Source: Janthinobacterium agaricidamnosum
GTDB lineage: Bacteria > Pseudomonadota > Gammaproteobacteria > Burkholderiales > Burkholderiaceae_D
Direction of reading: 5' to 3'
DNA length: 64,000 nucleotides
Assembly: GCF_003667705.1 (NCBI RefSeq)
Contig: NZ_CP033019.1
Span: 124,001-188,000 of the forward strand
Position numbers and translations under genes: made by a program. Every line of letters starts with the position of its first letter. The first letter of the stretch is position 1. This document shows, piece after piece, positions 41,469 through 48,834 of the stretch. The notes below the pieces were generated by a model, which saw only the letters and a list, made by a program, of their open reading frames with translations, did no database searches and was not told where the DNA came from.

Positions 41469-41532
41469 GGGGTCAGACCCCCAACACAGCTGACGCAAAG
41501 CCTGGCGCCAACGCGCGTGAGGGTCTGACCCC
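41469..41532. repeat. dispersed palindromic repeat, copy A (split arms)
   Basis: GGGGTCAGACCCC at 41469-41481 and GGGTCTGACCCC at 41521-41532, separated by 39 nt. The same arms form tight 27-bp palindromes at 51943 and 63258. Confidence 0.8.
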
Positions 41533-41603
41533 ATATGCGGACGCTCCGCGCGTAGTCCCCATATCTGTTTTTCAGCTTTCCAAACTCTTTTTAATTTGTT
41601 TTC

Positions 41604-41627
41604 CGAACAACATAAGTTCGCTACAGT
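41604..41627 (+). promoter_or_regulatory. candidate operator/-10 of the rhodanese-encapsulin cluster
   Basis: CGAAC-N7-GTTCG (41604-41620) is directly followed by TACAGT (41622-41627), which could be the -10 with start about 35 bp before the rhodanese ATG. The inverted repeat sits in the spacer, a good place for repression by the XRE-type regulator encoded in the cluster. Confidence 0.45.
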
Positions 41628-41670
41628 GGACTCGTGCTGGTTTTTGACGACGGAATAAAGAGGTGGACAG

Positions 41671-42168
41671 ATGGCTGCTGCAGAACTGATTTTCGATCCC
41701 CGCGCCGCGCACGGCGAGGCGGCGTTTGATGAAGTACTCCATCTCGCGCGCAGCCAGGCGCAGGCGCAGGGTTTGCCGTATGCGGGCATCGTCAGCGCGC
41801 AGGATGCGTGGCAACTGGTGCAGGCCGGCAAAGCCGTGCTGGTCGACGTGCGCACCAACGAAGAACGCACTTTTGTCGGCTACGTGCCCGCCTCGCTGCA
41901 CGTGGCGTGGGCCACCGGCACGGCTATGAACCGCAATCCCCGTTTTACCCGCGAGCTCGAAGCGAAGGTGGGCGGCAAGGATGCCGTCGTGGTGCTGCTG
42001 TGCCGCAGCGGCAAGCGCTCGGCCGCGGCTGCCGAAGCGGCCGCCAAGGCGGGTTTTACGCACGTCTTCAATATCGCGCAAGGCTTCGAGGGCGACCTCG
42101 ACGCACAGCAGCAGCGTGGCCACAGCGGCGGCTGGCGCTGGCATGCGCTGCCCTGGCTGCAAGATTAA
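41671..42168 (+). CDS. rhodanese-domain sulfurtransferase of the encapsulin cluster
   Basis: A 165-residue single-domain rhodanese. The active-site loop is LLCRSGKRSAAA with persulfide-forming C111, and VLVDVRTNEER is the conserved entry motif. It could carry sulfane sulfur to or from the encapsulated cysteine desulfurase. It is the first gene of a co-directional run: rhodanese, EpsC, XRE, shell, desulfurase. Rhodaneses and serine acetyltransferases are recurring neighbours of family 2A encapsulins. Confidence 0.88.
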   Translation: MAAAELIFDPRAAHGEAAFDEVLHLARSQAQAQGLPYAGIVSAQDAWQLVQAGKAVLVDVRTNEERTFVGYVPASLHVAWATGTAMNRNPRFTRELEAKVGGKDAVVVLLCRSGKRSAAAAEAAAKAGFTHVFNIAQGFEGDLDAQQQRGHSGGWRWHALPWLQD

Positions 42169-42187
42169 CCCGCTTCCCGGGACCACC

Positions 42188-43174
42188 ATGAACCAGCGAG
42201 CCCTTCCCCCCGTCTCCCTTGCCGCGCAGCCGCAATGGGAGCTGCACCAGATCGTCGACGAGTTGCGCGCCGTGCGCGCGCAGTGGCGCGAAGGATTGGC
42301 CGGCAGCCAGGAATGCGGTGCGCGCGAATTCCCGTCGCGCCAGCATTTGCACGACATCATCAAAGCCCTGTGCGCGGCCCTGTTCCCCATGCGTCTGGGG
42401 CCCCTCGACCTGCAGCAGGAGAGCGAGGATTTCTTTGTCGGCCACACGCTCGACACGACGCTCACGGGCTTGCACGAACAGGTGCGGCGCGAACTCAGTT
42501 ACCACGCGCGCCAGCACGGCTTGCAGCAGACGGTATCCATCGAACAGCAGGCGCTGGCCATCGTGCAGCGCTTCGCCCGCGCGCTGCCGCGCATCCGCGC
42601 CCGGCTCGACACGGACGTGGCGGCCGCCTTCCATGGCGACCCGGCCGCGCACAGCGTCGACGAAGTGCTGCTGTGCTATCCGGGCATCCTGGCCATTATC
42701 CACTACCGCCTGGCGCACACCTTGTATGCGCTCGGCGCGCCGCTGGTGGCGCGCATCATCGCCGAAGTGGCCCATTCGCAGACGGGCATCGACATCCACC
42801 CGGGCGCCATCATCGGCAGCAGCTTTTTCATCGACCATGGTACGGGCGTGGTGATCGGCGAGACGGCCATCATCGGCGAGCGCGTGCGCATTTATCAAGC
42901 CGTCACCCTGGGCGCCAAGCGCTTTCCAGCCGGCTTTGATGGCGTGTTGAAAAAGGGGCTGGCGCGCCATCCCATCGTGCAGGACGACGTGGTCATCTAC
43001 GCGGGCGCCACCATACTCGGGCGGGTGACCATCGGCCAGGGCTCCGTCATCGGCGGCAATGTCTGGCTGACCCGCAGCGTGGCGCCCGGCAGCCATGTCA
43101 CGCAAGCGCACAACCAGCAGGAGGCGCCGGAATCGCCGGCGCCATCCCACCCCGCCTTTGCCCACCACCCATGA
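42188..43174 (+). CDS. epsC: serine O-acetyltransferase, EpsC/CysE type
   Basis: A 328-residue serine acetyltransferase with an N-terminal helical domain and a left-handed beta-helix (IHPGAIIGSSFFIDHGTGVVIGE region around residues 203-225, with catalytic His in DHGTG, then AVTLGAKRF). It makes O-acetylserine, the precursor of cysteine, hence substrate for the desulfurase. EpsC homologues commonly accompany encapsulin 2A genes. ATG 42188 is 19 bp after the rhodanese stop. Confidence 0.92.
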   Translation: MNQRALPPVSLAAQPQWELHQIVDELRAVRAQWREGLAGSQECGAREFPSRQHLHDIIKALCAALFPMRLGPLDLQQESEDFFVGHTLDTTLTGLHEQVRRELSYHARQHGLQQTVSIEQQALAIVQRFARALPRIRARLDTDVAAAFHGDPAAHSVDEVLLCYPGILAIIHYRLAHTLYALGAPLVARIIAEVAHSQTGIDIHPGAIIGSSFFIDHGTGVVIGETAIIGERVRIYQAVTLGAKRFPAGFDGVLKKGLARHPIVQDDVVIYAGATILGRVTIGQGSVIGGNVWLTRSVAPGSHVTQAHNQQEAPESPAPSHPAFAHHP

Positions 43175-43181
43175 GGACAGC

Positions 43182-43406
43182 ATGTTGATCAAACAGTTTG
43201 GACTGGCCGTGCGCCAGTTGCGCGAAGGGCATGGCTGGTCGCAGGAGCGCCTGGCCGAAGCGGCCGACTTGAACCGCTCGTTCATCGGCGAAATCGAACG
43301 GGGCGCCGCCACGCCATCGCTGCTGACGGTGGAAAAACTGGCCATCGCGCTGGGCATCGGCCTGGCGGGATTGATGGCGCGCTGCGAACCGGAACTGGTG
43401 GATTAA
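43182..43406 (+). CDS. XRE-family helix-turn-helix regulator
   Basis: A 74-residue, single-domain Cro/CI-type protein: LREGHGWSQERLAEAADLN and SFIGEIERGAATPSL are the two helices of the motif. GAGGACAGC precedes the ATG. It starts 7 bp after epsC and ends 116 bp before the encapsulin gene, so it is well placed to control the cluster; small XRE proteins of this sort are also seen near cysteine and sulfur genes. Confidence 0.87.
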   Translation: MLIKQFGLAVRQLREGHGWSQERLAEAADLNRSFIGEIERGAATPSLLTVEKLAIALGIGLAGLMARCEPELVD

Positions 43407-43444
43407 TCGGGTGGATCAAGCGTCACGATGATGGCGATAGCATG

Positions 43445-43473
43445 TTGAGAGAAGAGGGGAGACGTCCGATACT
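43445..43473 (+). promoter_or_regulatory. promoter of the encapsulin-desulfurase operon
   Basis: TTGAGA (43445-43450), 17-bp spacer, GATACT (43468-43473). The predicted start is near 43480, about 43 bp before the shell gene. This gives the shell and cargo genes a transcript of their own, allowing high expression of the shell. Confidence 0.6.
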
Positions 43474-43522
43474 TTATTTGTTTTTCAGATAAGCATATTC
43501 ACTTTTCTCATCAGGAGTAGTC

Positions 43523-44452
43523 ATGACAGTAGCAACAGAGAGCCAGTTTGCGCTGGGCGACAACGCCGCGCGCCAGCTGGCCAATGCAAGCAAGAGCGTC
43601 CCCCAGCTGTCCACGATCACGCCGCGCTGGCTCGTGCACCTGCTGCAATGGCTGCCCGTGGAAGCGGGTATCTACCGCCTCAACCGCGTGAAAAATCCGA
43701 AGGACGTGCGCGTGGCCTGCTCGCAGCGCGACGAGTCGGAACTGCCGCAAACCTTCGTCGACTACGACGACCAGCCGCGCGAGTATTTTCTCAATGCCGT
43801 CAGCACGGTGCTCGACGTGCACACACGCGTGTCGGACCTGTACAGCAGCCCGCACGATCAGATCAAGGAGCAGCTGCGCCTGACCATCGAGACGATCAAG
43901 GAGCGCCAGGAAAGCGAATTGATCAACAATCCCGACTACGGCCTGCTGGCCAGCGTGCATGACGACCAGCGCATCTTTACGCTGACGGGCGCGCCCACGC
44001 CGGACGACCTCGACGAACTGCTGACGAAAGTGTGGAAGGAGCCGGGCTTTTTCCTGGCGCACCCGCTGGCCATTGCCGCCTTTGGCCGCGAATGTACGCG
44101 CCGTGGCGTGCCGCCGCCCACCGTCAGCCTGTTCGGCTCCCAGTTTTTGACGTGGCGCGGCGTGCCGCTGGTGCCGTCCGATAAGCTGCCCATCGAAGAC
44201 GGCAAGACGAAGATCATTTTGCTGCGCGCGGGCGAGCAGCGGCAAGGCGTGATCGGCCTGTTCCAGCCTGGCCTGGCGGGCGAGCAAAGCCCGGGCCTGT
44301 CCGTGCGCTTCATGGGCATCAACCGCCACGCGATTTCGTCCTATTTGATTTCGCTGTATTGCTCGCTGGCTGTGCTGACCGACGATGCGCTGGCCGTACT
44401 GGAAGACGTGGAGATCGGTAAATACCATGACTACCCAGACACCTACAAGTGA
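43523..44452 (+). CDS. family 2A encapsulin nanocompartment shell protein (SrpI-like)
   Basis: A 309-residue HK97-fold encapsulin shell protein of family 2A. The N-terminal arm and core (ALGDNAARQLANASKSVPQL, TPRWLVHLLQWLPVEAGIYRLN in pieces) and the C-terminal segment ending DVEIGKYHDYPDTYK are characteristic of SrpI-type shells, which form ~25-nm T=1 capsids. AGGAGTAGTC is a good ribosome-binding site. The cargo gene overlaps its 3' end by 26 bp, so shell and cargo are translated together. Known relatives package a cysteine desulfurase and can store elemental sulfur. Confidence 0.95.
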   Translation: MTVATESQFALGDNAARQLANASKSVPQLSTITPRWLVHLLQWLPVEAGIYRLNRVKNPKDVRVACSQRDESELPQTFVDYDDQPREYFLNAVSTVLDVHTRVSDLYSSPHDQIKEQLRLTIETIKERQESELINNPDYGLLASVHDDQRIFTLTGAPTPDDLDELLTKVWKEPGFFLAHPLAIAAFGRECTRRGVPPPTVSLFGSQFLTWRGVPLVPSDKLPIEDGKTKIILLRAGEQRQGVIGLFQPGLAGEQSPGLSVRFMGINRHAISSYLISLYCSLAVLTDDALAVLEDVEIGKYHDYPDTYK

Positions 44453-46217
44453 TGGCGCGGCAGGCTTGCCTGCCGTCCCGTTTTTGCCTGACGAAGCGAC
44501 CCTGAACCGCCTGGCCGGCGAGTTTTTCGCGCGCTTGCCTGGCCTCGCGCCTGCGCTTGACAAGTCGCCCAGCCTTGGCGGCTCGGGCAGCGTGCTCGAT
44601 GCGGCACCCCGTTATGCGAACCGTCCGCCGCCCCAGCCCGGCCCGTCGTTCGCCGCCATCGCGCCTGGCGTGGCGACGGCGCAGGTGCCGCCCGTGACGG
44701 CGCCGCTGGAAGCACCGATCGCGCCGGCGCCGGCATCGGTACCCACGCCGCGCGCGTCCAGCCTCGGTGCGCCGTCGCCCTACTATTTTGTCGGCGGCGC
44801 GCATGGCTATCCGGCGTCGAACGGCAAGCTCGATGGTCTGGCGCAGCAGGGACTGGGACAGGCCGCGCCCGACGCGTTTGCCACGCCGCAGCGGACGCCC
44901 GCGCGCCAGCTGCCCATATCGCCATCTGACAGCCAGCCCGCGTTCTATTTCCAGACCGAGCTGCCTGCGCGGCCGCAAGGGCATGGCCAAACCCCCGCGC
45001 CATTCGACGTGCACGCCGTGCGGCGCGACTTTCCCGTACTGGCCGAACGGGTCAACGGCAAGCCGCTGGCCTGGTTCGACAATGCGGCCACTACGCACAA
45101 GCCGCAGTCGGTGATCGACCGCGTGTCGTATTTCTATGCGCACGAGAATTCGAACATCCACCGCGCGGCGCACGCGCTGGCGGCGCGCGCCAGTGATGCC
45201 TATGAAGCGGCGCGCGCCAAGGTGGCGAGTTTTCTGGGCGCCGCCTCGGCCAATGAAATCATCTTCGTGCGCGGCGCCACGGAAGGCATCAATCTGATCG
45301 CCAACACGTTCGGGCGCAAGTACATCGGCAGCGGCGACGAGATCATCGTCTCGCAGCTCGAGCACCACGCCAACATCGTGCCGTGGCAGCAGCTGGCGGC
45401 GGAAAAGGGCGCTACTCTGCGCGTGATTCCCGTCGACGACAGCGGCCAGATCCTCCTCGATGAATTCCGCAAGCTGCTCAACGGGCGCACCAAGCTGGTG
45501 TCTGTGACGCAGGTGTCGAATGCGCTGGGCACCGTCACGCCGGTAGCGCAGATCATCGCGCTCGCGCATGCGGCCGGCGTGCGCGTGCTGGTCGACGGGG
45601 CGCAAGCCGTGTCGCATTTGCGCGTGGACGTGCAGGCGCTGGGCGCCGATTTCTATGTATTTTCGGGGCATAAAGTGTTCGGCCCGACGGGCATCGGCGC
45701 CGTGTATGGCAAGGCGGACTTGCTCGAGCAGTTGCCGCCATGGCAGGGCGGCGGCAACATGATCGCCGACGTCACGTTCGAGCGCACCGTCTACCAGGGC
45801 GTGCCGAACCGTTTCGAGGCGGGCACGGGCAATATCGCCGATGCCGTCGGTCTGGGCGCGGCCATCGATTACGTGCAGCGCATCGGCCTGGAAAACATCG
45901 CTGCCTACGAGCACGCGCTGCTGGAATACGCGACGCACCAGCTGCAAGCGATTCCCGGCGTGCGCCTGATCGGCACGGCGCTGGACAAGGCCAGCGTGGC
46001 GTCGTTCGTGCTGGCCGGCTACGAGCCGGCGGAAGTGGGGCGCGCCCTGAACGACGAGGGCATCGCCGTGCGCTCGGGCCACCACTGCGCCCAGCCGATT
46101 TTGCGCCGCTTCGGCGTGGAAGCGACCGTGCGGCCCTCGTTCGCCTTCTACAACACGTATGAGGAAATCGACCGCATGATCGTCGTGGTCAAACGCCTGG
46201 CGGGCGCGCGCCGCTGA
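44427..46217 (+). CDS. family 2A encapsulin cargo: cysteine desulfurase with disordered N-terminal extension
   Basis: A 596-residue SufS-like cysteine desulfurase. Residues 1-190 are Pro/Ala/Gly-rich and probably disordered, the segment that targets such enzymes into the capsid. The catalytic domain (192-596) has PLP Lys K416 in FSGHKVFGPTG, His in EHHANIVPW, and the persulfide Cys C554 in SGHHCAQP. It converts cysteine to alanine and leaves persulfide sulfur. The extension carries two similar aromatic patches, YYFVGG (119-124) and FYFQTE (173-178). Start at 44427 is inside the shell gene; an earlier in-frame start would lengthen the overlap. Confidence 0.94.
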   Translation: MTTQTPTSDGAAGLPAVPFLPDEATLNRLAGEFFARLPGLAPALDKSPSLGGSGSVLDAAPRYANRPPPQPGPSFAAIAPGVATAQVPPVTAPLEAPIAPAPASVPTPRASSLGAPSPYYFVGGAHGYPASNGKLDGLAQQGLGQAAPDAFATPQRTPARQLPISPSDSQPAFYFQTELPARPQGHGQTPAPFDVHAVRRDFPVLAERVNGKPLAWFDNAATTHKPQSVIDRVSYFYAHENSNIHRAAHALAARASDAYEAARAKVASFLGAASANEIIFVRGATEGINLIANTFGRKYIGSGDEIIVSQLEHHANIVPWQQLAAEKGATLRVIPVDDSGQILLDEFRKLLNGRTKLVSVTQVSNALGTVTPVAQIIALAHAAGVRVLVDGAQAVSHLRVDVQALGADFYVFSGHKVFGPTGIGAVYGKADLLEQLPPWQGGGNMIADVTFERTVYQGVPNRFEAGTGNIADAVGLGAAIDYVQRIGLENIAAYEHALLEYATHQLQAIPGVRLIGTALDKASVASFVLAGYEPAEVGRALNDEGIAVRSGHHCAQPILRRFGVEATVRPSFAFYNTYEEIDRMIVVVKRLAGARR

Positions 46218-46372: not shown

Positions 46373-47092
46373 GTGGAAGATCAACACAGCTCGCCCGAGC
46401 TATTCCTGTTCCTGGCGTCGACCGTGCACGACATGAAAAATTCGATCAGCGTCGTCAGCGGCACTTTGGAGTCGCTGCTGGCGGCCGAGCAGGCCAAGCC
46501 GACGCCCCAGGCCGACCCCGCCTATCTGCAGATGGCGCAGATGCTGTACCAGACCAAGCGCCTCAACGATAACCTGATCCAGCTGCTGGCCCTGTACAAG
46601 GAAGTGGGCAAGCCCGGCTACCCCTTCGACGTACAGCCGCAACTGGTGAGCCAGGTCATCGACCAGGTGGTGGACCAGGAAAAGATCCTGCTGGCCTCGA
46701 AAGGCATCCATCTGCAGACGGCTTGCCCGCCCGAGCTGATCTGGACCCTCGATGAAGACCTGGTCATCGGCGTGCTCGCGCATGCCATCAACAACGCCAT
46801 CCGCTACACGAAGGATACGATACGCCTGTCGGTGCGGGAGCACGACGATATGCTCGAGCTGCGCGTGGAAGACAATGGCGACGGCTATACCCAGGCGCTG
46901 CTCGACGCGGGCAGCGCGGCCATGGATGGCATGACCGCCGGCGTGAATTTTTCCACCAACAGCACGGGCCTGGGCCTGTATTTTTCCAGCGAAGTGGCAA
47001 AGATGCACAAGCACCGGGGCAGCAGCGGCAGCATCGCCCTGGAAAATGGCGGCGCCCTGGGCGGCGGCTGTTTCATCCTGCGCCTGCCCTGA
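46373..47092 (+). CDS. soluble histidine kinase
   Basis: A 239-residue sensor kinase without membrane spans or a separate sensor domain. The phosphoacceptor His is H19 in STVHDMKNSISVVSG, followed by N-box HAINNAIRYT, G1 box EDNGDGY and G2 box GLGLYFSS. The GTG at 46373 has AAGGAG at the right distance; a longer in-frame reading has none. The gene for its probable partner, a REC-TPR protein, begins 11 bp downstream. Input must come from a partner protein. Confidence 0.88.
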   Translation: MEDQHSSPELFLFLASTVHDMKNSISVVSGTLESLLAAEQAKPTPQADPAYLQMAQMLYQTKRLNDNLIQLLALYKEVGKPGYPFDVQPQLVSQVIDQVVDQEKILLASKGIHLQTACPPELIWTLDEDLVIGVLAHAINNAIRYTKDTIRLSVREHDDMLELRVEDNGDGYTQALLDAGSAAMDGMTAGVNFSTNSTGLGLYFSSEVAKMHKHRGSSGSIALENGGALGGGCFILRLP

Positions 47093-47103
47093 ACGAGGAT
47101 GCC

Positions 47104-48834
47104 ATGACGACAGACAGCCACGCCACCGCCGCCGAAGCGGGCAGCACCGACTGGGCCGACAAACATTATCTGCTGGTCGACGACTTCATCGGCATCCGCA
47201 TCCTGCTGCGAGAATCGCTGCGCAACCTGGGCGCGCGCCATATCGACCAGGCGGCCAGCGGCGGCGAAGCCATGAAGCTGCTGGCCAAGACGCGCTACGA
47301 CGTGGTGCTGTGCGATTACAACCTGGGCGAAGGCAAGAATGGCCAGCAAGTGCTGGAAGAGACGCGCGTGCGCAACCTGACGGCGCCGTCGAGCGTCTGG
47401 CTGATGGTGTCGGCCGAGAAAAGCGTGGAATCCGTGATGGGCGCGGCCGAGCACCAGCCCGACGCCTACCTGATCAAACCGATCACGGAAGGCGTGCTGC
47501 TGACGCGCTTGAACCGCGTGTGGCACAAGAAGCAGGTGTTCCGTGAAATCGACCAGGCCTGCATGGAAAAGGATTATCTGCGCGCGGCCAAATTGTGCGA
47601 TGCGCAGATCGAAGTCAACAAGCTGCACGAGCTGGAATTGCTGCGCATGAAGGCGTCGTTGCTGCTGAAAAGCGGCGAGCCGGAAAAGGCCCGCGCCGTG
47701 TACGAAAAAGTGCTGGCCGAGCGCGATTACAGCTGGGCCAAGGCAGGCCTGGGCAAGATCCGCATGAATAACGGCGAGCACGAGGCGGCGCGCCAGATCT
47801 TCCAGGGCGTGATCGTCGAGAACAAGTACTACATCGACGCCTACGACCAGATGGCCGTCGCCTACCAGCTGATGGGCCAGCACGAGGAAGCGTGCGGCGT
47901 GCTGGAAAAGGCGGCGCGCCTGTCGCCCAATTCCGTGCCGCGCCAGCGCAACCTGGGCCTCGCCGCGCTAAAGATCGGCAATGTCAGCATGGCGGAAAAG
48001 GCTTTTCGCAAGTGTATTTCCATCGGCGAGTTTTCCGTCATGAAGACGCCGGACGCCTATCTGGGACTGGCGCGCGTGTGCGGCCTGAAGAAGGATGCCA
48101 AGGAGGCGCTGCAGTGGCTGCTGCTGGCGCAGCGCGAATTCTCGCCCGAGCAGATCGGCTTGCGCGCGAAGATCACGGAAGGCATGGTGCACCACGAAAC
48201 GGGCGATTACCGGCGCGCGCGCAAGTGCGGCGACGAACTCGAAGCCATGCTGCTGGAAGACCCGGCGCGGCCCGAGAAAAGCATCTGCATGGAACTGGCG
48301 ACCCTGCTGTTCGCCGTCGGCGTCAAGGATGCGCCGGCCGGCCTGCTGTGCTACGTGGTGAAGAACAACCACGACAACCAGGTGGTGCAGGACGAGGTGC
48401 AAAAGATCTTCGACAAGGCGAAGATGGGCGACGAAGGCACGAGCCTGATCATCGCCTCGCGCAAGGAAGCGTCGGACTTGATGAACAAGGGCGTGCTGCT
48501 GTGGAAGACGGACAAGCTCAACGAAGCGGTGGCCTGGATGCGCGCGGCGCGCGAAAAACTGCCGAACAACCTGCGCATCCTGTTCAATTCCGCGCAAATC
48601 ATCGTATCGTTCCTGGAGCAGCGCGGCTACCAGGCGGACTTGGCGGCCGAGGCGATGGAAGTGTTGTTGTATGTAGACAAAATTGCACCGGGCCAGCAGC
48701 GCTTTGCGCAATTGATGGAGCAACTGGTGCAGCTGACGCCCCCGCCCGGGCCGGAAGAGGCTGTCGAGGTGGCGGAAAAAGCGCCGCCGGCGCCGGAAAA
48801 AGGGGGAAAAGCCGTGCGGGAGCGTGCCGGATGA
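47104..48834 (+). CDS. response regulator with TPR repeat output domain
   Basis: A 576-residue protein: REC domain at residues ~20-140 (DD at 26-27, phospho-acceptor D71 in VVLCDYNLGEGKNG, K125 in LIKPI), then tandem TPR-like helices through ~540 (e.g. AKLCDAQIEVNKL, ARAVYEKVLAERDYSWAKAGLGK in pieces) and a Pro/Glu/Ala tail. It has no DNA-binding domain, so output is by protein interaction. It pairs with the kinase just upstream. REC-TPR proteins of this layout exist in several betaproteobacteria but I know of no defined role. Confidence 0.9.
   Translation: MTTDSHATAAEAGSTDWADKHYLLVDDFIGIRILLRESLRNLGARHIDQAASGGEAMKLLAKTRYDVVLCDYNLGEGKNGQQVLEETRVRNLTAPSSVWLMVSAEKSVESVMGAAEHQPDAYLIKPITEGVLLTRLNRVWHKKQVFREIDQACMEKDYLRAAKLCDAQIEVNKLHELELLRMKASLLLKSGEPEKARAVYEKVLAERDYSWAKAGLGKIRMNNGEHEAARQIFQGVIVENKYYIDAYDQMAVAYQLMGQHEEACGVLEKAARLSPNSVPRQRNLGLAALKIGNVSMAEKAFRKCISIGEFSVMKTPDAYLGLARVCGLKKDAKEALQWLLLAQREFSPEQIGLRAKITEGMVHHETGDYRRARKCGDELEAMLLEDPARPEKSICMELATLLFAVGVKDAPAGLLCYVVKNNHDNQVVQDEVQKIFDKAKMGDEGTSLIIASRKEASDLMNKGVLLWKTDKLNEAVAWMRAAREKLPNNLRILFNSAQIIVSFLEQRGYQADLAAEAMEVLLYVDKIAPGQQRFAQLMEQLVQLTPPPGPEEAVEVAEKAPPAPEKGGKAVRERAG

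What the first reader, a model, noticed from the sequence alone, without database searches (positions are those of the whole stretch)
41671..46217. Family 2A encapsulin sulfur nanocompartment with rhodanese, EpsC and XRE regulator in one cluster
Five adjacent co-directional genes encode cysteine precursor synthesis (EpsC), a sulfur carrier (rhodanese), a small regulator, the HK97-fold shell and the desulfurase cargo. Family 2A encapsulins with desulfurase cargo are described in cyanobacteria and other bacteria; a complete regulator-included cluster in this betaproteobacterial setting is a strong candidate for a self-contained sulfur storage or cysteine detoxification organelle. The shell/cargo overlap and own promoter point to tuned stoichiometry.
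Basis: partly seen in the sequence, partly recalled or inferred. Interest (0 to 1): 0.85.

Follow-up and report, generated by a model that had tools for sequence, protein, structure and literature searches.

The report
Encapsulin sulfur cluster with dedicated switch
A soil bacterium carries a known kind of protein nanocage for a sulfur-handling enzyme, and beside it a tiny regulator gene that in related bacteria nearly always comes with a matching DNA switch in front of the cage gene, which suggests how the cage is turned on.

Summary
In a Janthinobacterium genome, five co-directional genes (rhodanese, EpsC, a 74-aa XRE regulator, Family 2A encapsulin shell, desulfurase cargo) lie at 41671-46217; shell and cargo genes overlap by 26 nt. 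Shell, cargo and EpsC pass curated NCBIfam cut-offs, and the shell matches solved encapsulins.

What I did not find in print is the regulatory part. In loci with xre, a box TTGRYGKCTATAGCMKG abuts the -35 of a shell promoter (TTGA, 17 nt, GAYANT). It reaches the score threshold in 46 of 49 xre+ and 0 of 31 xre- loci, and in held-out loci in 20 of 23 and 0 of 9. It is the only site at two mismatches or fewer in the 6.36-Mb genome. Its centre lies near -42.5. XRE's best solved sequence relatives are restriction-modification controller proteins, which bind TATA-centred sites and recruit sigma.

Best reading: a known sulfur nanocompartment whose shell-cargo promoter is run by a dedicated, controller-protein-like XRE, probably an activator. 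Binding and the sign of regulation are untested; sulfur storage is not shown.

The parts
41671..42168 (+). rhodanese (single domain, active-site loop CRSGKR at residue 111)
   Evidence: PF00581 55.2 bits vs 22.2; motif position; meaning of the motif recalled
42188..43174 (+). EpsC-type serine O-acetyltransferase
   Evidence: NF041874 155.2 bits vs cut-off 150; translation
43182..43406 (+). XRE: 74-aa helix-turn-helix regulator, proposed controller of the shell promoter
43428..43448 (+). proposed XRE operator ATGATGGCGATAGCATGTTGA, dyad between 43437 and 43438, abutting and overlapping the -35
   Evidence: conserved in xre+ relatives; only site at <=2 mismatches in the own genome (at 3 mismatches 2 more, control 3)
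43445..43450 (+). -35 hexamer TTGAGA of the shell promoter
   Evidence: TTGA is fixed by the search pattern, so its conservation there is partly by construction
43468..43473 (+). -10 hexamer GATACT of the shell promoter, predicted start about 43480
   Evidence: consensus GAYANT at 17-nt spacing in 32 sequences, not fixed by the pattern
43523..44452 (+). Family 2A encapsulin shell (SrpI-like)
   Evidence: NF041162 542 bits vs 380; PF19307 355 bits; 8t6r 597 bits over residues 6-309
44427..46217 (+). cysteine desulfurase cargo: loading region about residues 1-180 (LNRLAGEFF at 26, SPYYFVGG at 117), SufS-like domain after it (SGHK from 412, RSGHHCAQP at 548)
   Evidence: NF041166 881 bits vs 800; motif positions; published motifs in PMC8049743 (passages)
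41586..41628 (+). conserved promoter region upstream of rhodanese (TTTTTAATTTGTTTTCCGAACAACATAAGTTCGCTACAGT), no XRE box
   Evidence: 13-sequence alignment; box absent; no wider regulon found

Best explanation
This is a Family 2A encapsulin nanocompartment with a SufS-type cysteine desulfurase as cargo (shown by family membership; assembly and loading are inferred from published relatives). The upstream genes make EpsC, which supplies the cysteine precursor, the rhodanese, which should accept or move the sulfane sulfur, and a 74-aa XRE protein; that these three are one transcript is inferred from their spacing. XRE most likely binds one operator that abuts the -35 element of the shell-cargo promoter (43428-43448, dyad near -42.5). 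By analogy with restriction-modification controller proteins, it would recruit RNA polymerase there. The shell and its overlapping cargo gene would then be switched on only after the upstream genes have been expressed. Shown: conserved box, conserved promoter, co-occurrence with xre, one site in the own genome. Inferred: binding, the sign (activator over repressor) and the delay.
For: Family calls and cargo loading motifs. Box in the shell promoter: 44 of 50 xre+ (49 loci plus window) and 0 of 31 xre- by regex; by weight matrix 46 of 49 and 0 of 31, and held-out 20 of 23 and 0 of 9. On a shell tree of 72 rows xre needs at least 11 changes; in independent pairs on supported branches the box goes the same way in 6.2 of 8, the opposite way in 0, median p 0.03. 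Conservation is in DNA, not protein: of 75 xre+ loci (duplicates included) the box lies after the xre stop in 43, overlaps the xre 3' end or stop in 21, and is not found by the regex in 11. In 39 genomes all 25 sites at <=1 mismatch, in 24 genomes, lie at the shell locus; 13 two-mismatch sites do not (held by eye against coordinates). In 369 class genomes the only site at <=1 mismatch is the own one. XRE relatives: C.BclI and C.AhdI best by sequence; C.BclI, C.AhdI and C.Esp1396I among the top six by structure. C.Esp1396I dimers centre on TATA and the distal site recruits sigma (PMC4041747, passages).
Against: The box sits next to xre, so a deletion that removes xre can remove the box too; part of the co-occurrence may be linkage. 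In L128 xre and box are both doubled side by side, which fits linkage as well as function. Two of the 31 xre- loci (L043, L059) start too close to the shell to judge xre. The best of the shuffled sequences scored 14.6, above the threshold of 12. XRE fold matches are tied within 1 Z with other XRE proteins (5woq, 3f52). The controller-protein operator pair (OL plus OR) is not seen. The window's core is GATA, not TATA. Boxes near the rhodanese promoter are only weakly enriched (9 of 49 xre+ and 1 of 28 xre-, p 0.08). Five xre+ loci lack a recognisable box (L025, L077, L080, L125, L126), and L134 falls just under the threshold (11.2) with a variant palindrome. No binding or expression data.
Confidence: 0.7

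Rival explanations
1. XRE binds the box but represses: it covers the -35 and keeps shell and cargo off until a signal removes it.
For: The box overlaps the -35 by TTGA. Many small XRE proteins are repressors (recalled), and SinR, DdrO and P22 c2 are among the structural matches.
Against: The dyad lies upstream of the -35 at about -42.5, the usual class II activator position (recalled); spacer and -10 are left free; the -10 is poor (GAYANT instead of TATAAT). XRE has no sensor domain (74 aa, one HTH domain).
Confidence: 0.27
2. The box is only an extended promoter element (or site of another factor) and XRE acts elsewhere; loss of both together is deletion linkage.
For: Box and xre are adjacent, often overlapping. 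L128 has both doubled together. One xre- locus (L069) has a box-like site at its rhodanese promoter.
Against: XREs with the changed stretch ISEIECG (L025, L125, L126) keep xre but lack the box, 3 of 3. L019 has no xre and retains a decayed box in place. Independent changes agree on the tree. The core is near-palindromic, as expected for a dimer site.
Confidence: 0.17
3. An ordinary Family 2A desulfurase operon with nothing further of note; the XRE is a passenger.
For: Core gene set described (PMC8346489, passages); no xre was found in 31 of 80 relatives with the same kind of shell and cargo (2 of the 31 start too near the shell to judge).
Against: Where present, XRE ends 61-323 nt upstream of the shell, 49 of 49, and L30-N31-R32 and E39-R40-G41 are invariant in 17 aligned XREs.
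Confidence: 0.12

Closest known systems
SrpI / CyD Family 2A encapsulin of Synechococcus elongatus PCC 7942 (PMC8049743, passages)
   Same: Same shell family (512 bits to 6x8m); desulfurase cargo with LARLANEFFS-like and SPYYF motifs
   Different: The words rhodanese, EpsC and regulator do not occur in the main text as searched, and its one use of acetyltransferase concerns cysteine synthesis in general; an XRE-box promoter is not described in the passages seen
Family 2A CD operons with serine acetyltransferase and rhodanese (PMC8346489, passages)
   Same: Same operon make-up; serine O-acetyltransferases and rhodaneses named there as the most enriched accessories
   Different: No dedicated regulator or operator in the passages seen; the supplementary figure on accessories could not be opened, so XRE may be listed there
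Restriction-modification controller proteins (C.BclI, C.AhdI, C.Esp1396I)
   Different: No restriction or methylase gene among the five genes here; one operator instead of the OL/OR pair; different flanking bases (GKC-TAT-AGCM against GACT-tat-AGTC, PMC4824078, passages)
PDB 8t6r shell, annotated Major membrane protein I
   Same: Closest solved shell, 597 bits over residues 6-309
   Different: Only the sequence match was seen; organism and operon not examined here (Acinetobacter baumannii is recalled)

Membership tests
Family 2A encapsulin | Shell passes the curated Family 2A model | tested here: met
   NF041162 542.3 bits vs 380; NF041163 (2B) 429.4 vs 400, also passed but lower
Family 2A encapsulin | No cNMP-binding domain (which marks 2B) | tested here: met
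   Only PF19307 found by Pfam in the 309-aa shell; definition from PMC8346489
Family 2A encapsulin | HK97 fold | tested here: met
   By sequence only: 597 and 512 bits to solved shells 8t6r and 6x8m over nearly full length; the window's shell itself was not modelled
Family 2A encapsulin | Adjacent desulfurase cargo with N-terminal loading region | tested here: met
   NF041166 881 vs 800; LNRLAGEFF at 26, SPYYFVGG at 117
Family 2A encapsulin | Assembles into icosahedral particles that hold the cargo | not testable with these tools
   needs purification and microscopy
EpsC serine O-acetyltransferase | Curated model cut-off | tested here: met
   155.2 vs 150
Restriction-modification controller (C) proteins | Small HTH_3 protein of the same fold | tested here: met
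   fold shared with other XRE proteins, so not specific
Restriction-modification controller (C) proteins | Linked to restriction and methylase genes | tested here: not met
   next to the encapsulin shell in 49 of 49 loci; the wider neighbourhoods were not annotated for restriction genes
Restriction-modification controller (C) proteins | Paired operators OL and OR at the regulated promoter | tested here: not met
   one box at the shell promoter in the 44 regex-positive sequences shown; L128 has two boxes, but each follows its own xre copy
Restriction-modification controller (C) proteins | Activates by recruiting sigma from the upstream site | not testable with these tools
   position near -42.5 fits; no experiment

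The most novel reading that the evidence does not exclude
Betaproteobacterial sulfur encapsulins are run by a co-opted controller-protein-type switch with a single target in the genome. The upstream operon first makes the cysteine precursor enzyme and the rhodanese together with XRE, and XRE then activates the shell-cargo promoter from a class II site, so cage building follows sulfur supply as a timed relay. In some lineages XRE also acts at the operon's own promoter as feedback.
Probability: 0.45. Interest if true: 0.6.

Novelty: new variant of a known kind. Interest (0 to 1): 0.42.

Why it matters
Encapsulin operons are catalogued by the thousand (PMC8346489), but I found no described transcription factor with its operator for a Family 2A system (searches; open-access library only, only 20 of 45 papers listed; supplements not opened). 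A dedicated regulator with one promoter site in the genome makes 'when does the cell build this compartment' directly testable with a reporter and a gel shift, and would give a compact, portable switch for heterologous nanocompartment expression. The shell and cargo themselves add another member to a known family.

Tried and rejected
The box as protein conservation (end of XRE): rejected, because of 75 loci it lies after the xre stop in 43 and overlaps the xre end in 21. A sulfur regulon behind the rhodanese upstream element (TTTWATTYGTTTTC): 4 sites in the own genome against 6 for the reversed control; beside the one other perfect site I saw no sulfur gene by eye, so a CysB-like input stays a recalled guess. 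XRE box near the rhodanese promoter as a general feature: weak, and not found in the window or the 12 Janthinobacterium loci. A class-wide shell search gave only 7 of 369 genomes. I fetched upstream DNA of 4 of the 6 non-own hits, found no xre by tblastn and saw no box by eye. First regex run was wrong and its zero counts are void (redone). The regex fixes ATAGC and TTGA, so those columns are conserved by construction; the unforced columns are the evidence. Fisher p-values treat related loci as independent; the tree-based test is fairer. In that tree I left out 7 Janthinobacterium loci and the 2 loci on short contigs. The held-out set is 40 of the 63 non-genus family hits, minus 8 duplicates, and includes kin of the first set. 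In one search the 49/31 set includes the 32 sequences that made the matrix, so only the held-out part is a clean test. Literature searches for a sulfur-storage paper and for Janthinobacterium with encapsulin (one phage paper) gave nothing of use.

Full report
WHAT IS THERE. The window lies in a 6.36-Mb single-contig genome whose closest named relatives are Janthinobacterium. Curated models name shell, cargo and EpsC above their cut-offs, and Pfam finds a SrpI-like shell with no cNMP domain. The shell is 597 bits from solved chain 8t6r and 512 from SrpI 6x8m. The cargo has the two loading motifs reported for SrpI cargo in recognisable form (PMC8049743, passages; positions).

HOW COMMON. Three loci on short contigs (L043, L044, L059) account for all three missing rhodaneses, and two of them for two of the nine missing EpsC. 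The 26-nt shell/cargo overlap recurs in 71 of 80. In the family, 86 of 294 genomes have the shell; of the genus members listed, 23 of 27. In two of the four genus genomes without it, G190 and G250, the mnmC-like gene (name recalled) runs straight into the histidine-kinase-like gene, an empty site. G212 shows none of the five genes at that site, with other DNA in the gap. G201 keeps EpsC and XRE there but not rhodanese, shell or desulfurase. So the cluster comes and goes largely as a unit. The gene set is published: 1281 Family 2A desulfurase operons were listed, with serine O-acetyltransferases and rhodaneses the most enriched accessories (PMC8346489, passages).

THE NEW PART. Upstream of the shell, Janthinobacterium loci share a block TAGCATGTTGAG. 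Across genera this becomes TTGRYGKCTATAGCMKG|TTGAnn, then 17 nt, then GAYANT, 77-98 nt before the start codon in 43 of the 44 sequences shown and 229 in L054. The regex fixes ATAGC and TTGA. Columns it does not fix are also conserved in 32 sequences: G, G, C and G at -3, 0, 2 and 11 in 32 of 32, and the -10 hexamer (its second, fourth and sixth bases A, A, T in 28-31 of 32, first base G in 27), against 0.03-0.53 bits in the spacer. The window's hexamers were also a hit of the consensus scan, though that scan found 2 with 1.1 expected. The near-palindrome GC-TATA-GC is centred about 42.5 nt before the predicted start; in the window the core reads GCGATAGC.

LINK TO XRE. By regex the box is in 44 of 50 xre+ sequences and 0 of 31 xre-. 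By weight matrix (score 12 or more; shuffled 99th percentile 2.9, best shuffle 14.6) it is in 46 of 49 and 0 of 31; in loci not used to make the matrix, 20 of 23 and 0 of 9. Two of the 31 (L043, L059) begin too near the shell to judge xre. Misses are informative. L134 has a variant palindrome CCGCCTATAGGCGG just under the threshold. L025, L125 and L126 carry an XRE with ISEIECG and have no box. L077 and L080 have XRE frames cut short at one end and no box. L019, without xre, holds a decayed box (score 1.4). On a shell tree xre needs at least 11 changes (8 forced by supported branches), and in independent pairs the box follows in 6.2 of 8 with none opposite. Because box and xre are neighbours, joint deletion could explain part of this. 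In L128 two xre copies are each followed by a box, so the two can also be copied together.

SPECIFICITY. In 39 genomes every one of 25 sites at up to one mismatch lies at the shell locus (24 genomes); 13 two-mismatch sites are elsewhere (held by eye against coordinates). Of these genomes 24 of 27 with xre and shell have the site (misses G132, G227, G035). The other 12 have none at that level: 4 lack the shell, 7 showed no xre at the locus, and 1 (G153) was not examined for xre. Among 369 class genomes the own site is the only one at up to one mismatch; 4 of the 6 other shell carriers in that draw were looked at and showed no xre. If XRE is the binder, its regulon in this genome is one promoter.

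PHYSIOLOGY. EpsC makes O-acetylserine, the desulfurase takes sulfur from cysteine and the rhodanese should accept it (established knowledge of these families). Encapsulation raised desulfurase activity about sevenfold in the Synechococcus system, which is induced by sulfate starvation (PMC8049743, abstract and passages). Storage of sulfur is not shown by anything here. In the own genome the next matches to the desulfurase are partial and 28-33 percent identical; there is a second EpsC-like gene (58 percent, intact, 312 aa) and a CysE-like one (45 percent).

VERDICT. A sound, already published kind of cluster; the dedicated XRE promoter box is a new, testable variant.

Noticed in passing
window 41495-41535: Inverted GGGTCAGACCC / GGGTCTGACCC element between the mnmC-like gene and the rhodanese, variable among Janthinobacterium loci; looks like an interspersed repeat.
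   Followed up: no
window 46373-48834: Histidine-kinase-like and response-regulator/TPR genes follow the cluster but are also present in the four genus genomes that lack the shell, so they are not part of it.
   Followed up: partly
L128 1978-3151 (reading strand): One genome (G019) has two xre copies in a row, each followed by a perfect box (boxes at 2717 and 3136).
   Followed up: partly
L025, L125, L126: XRE variants with ISEIECG instead of the usual stretch lack the box; they may read a different operator.
   Followed up: partly
L033, L040, L047, L049, L051, L052, L062, L066, L067, L068, L071: About 1 kb of extra sequence, room for one gene, sits between rhodanese and epsC in several loci such as Dechloromonas; not annotated.
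   Followed up: no
L018, L019, L021-L024, L027: Zoogloea-type loci show no epsC but keep rhodanese, shell and cargo, all but L019 with xre.
   Followed up: no
L117 (G201): epsC and xre remain but shell, cargo and rhodanese are gone from the site, and no box was seen after xre; a run of N follows.
   Followed up: partly
L069: Rhizobacter locus without xre carries a box-like site (score 19) 49 nt before the rhodanese start.
   Followed up: no
L035: Locus labelled Verrucomicrobiaceae (MAG) groups with betaproteobacterial shells; possibly misbinned.
   Followed up: no
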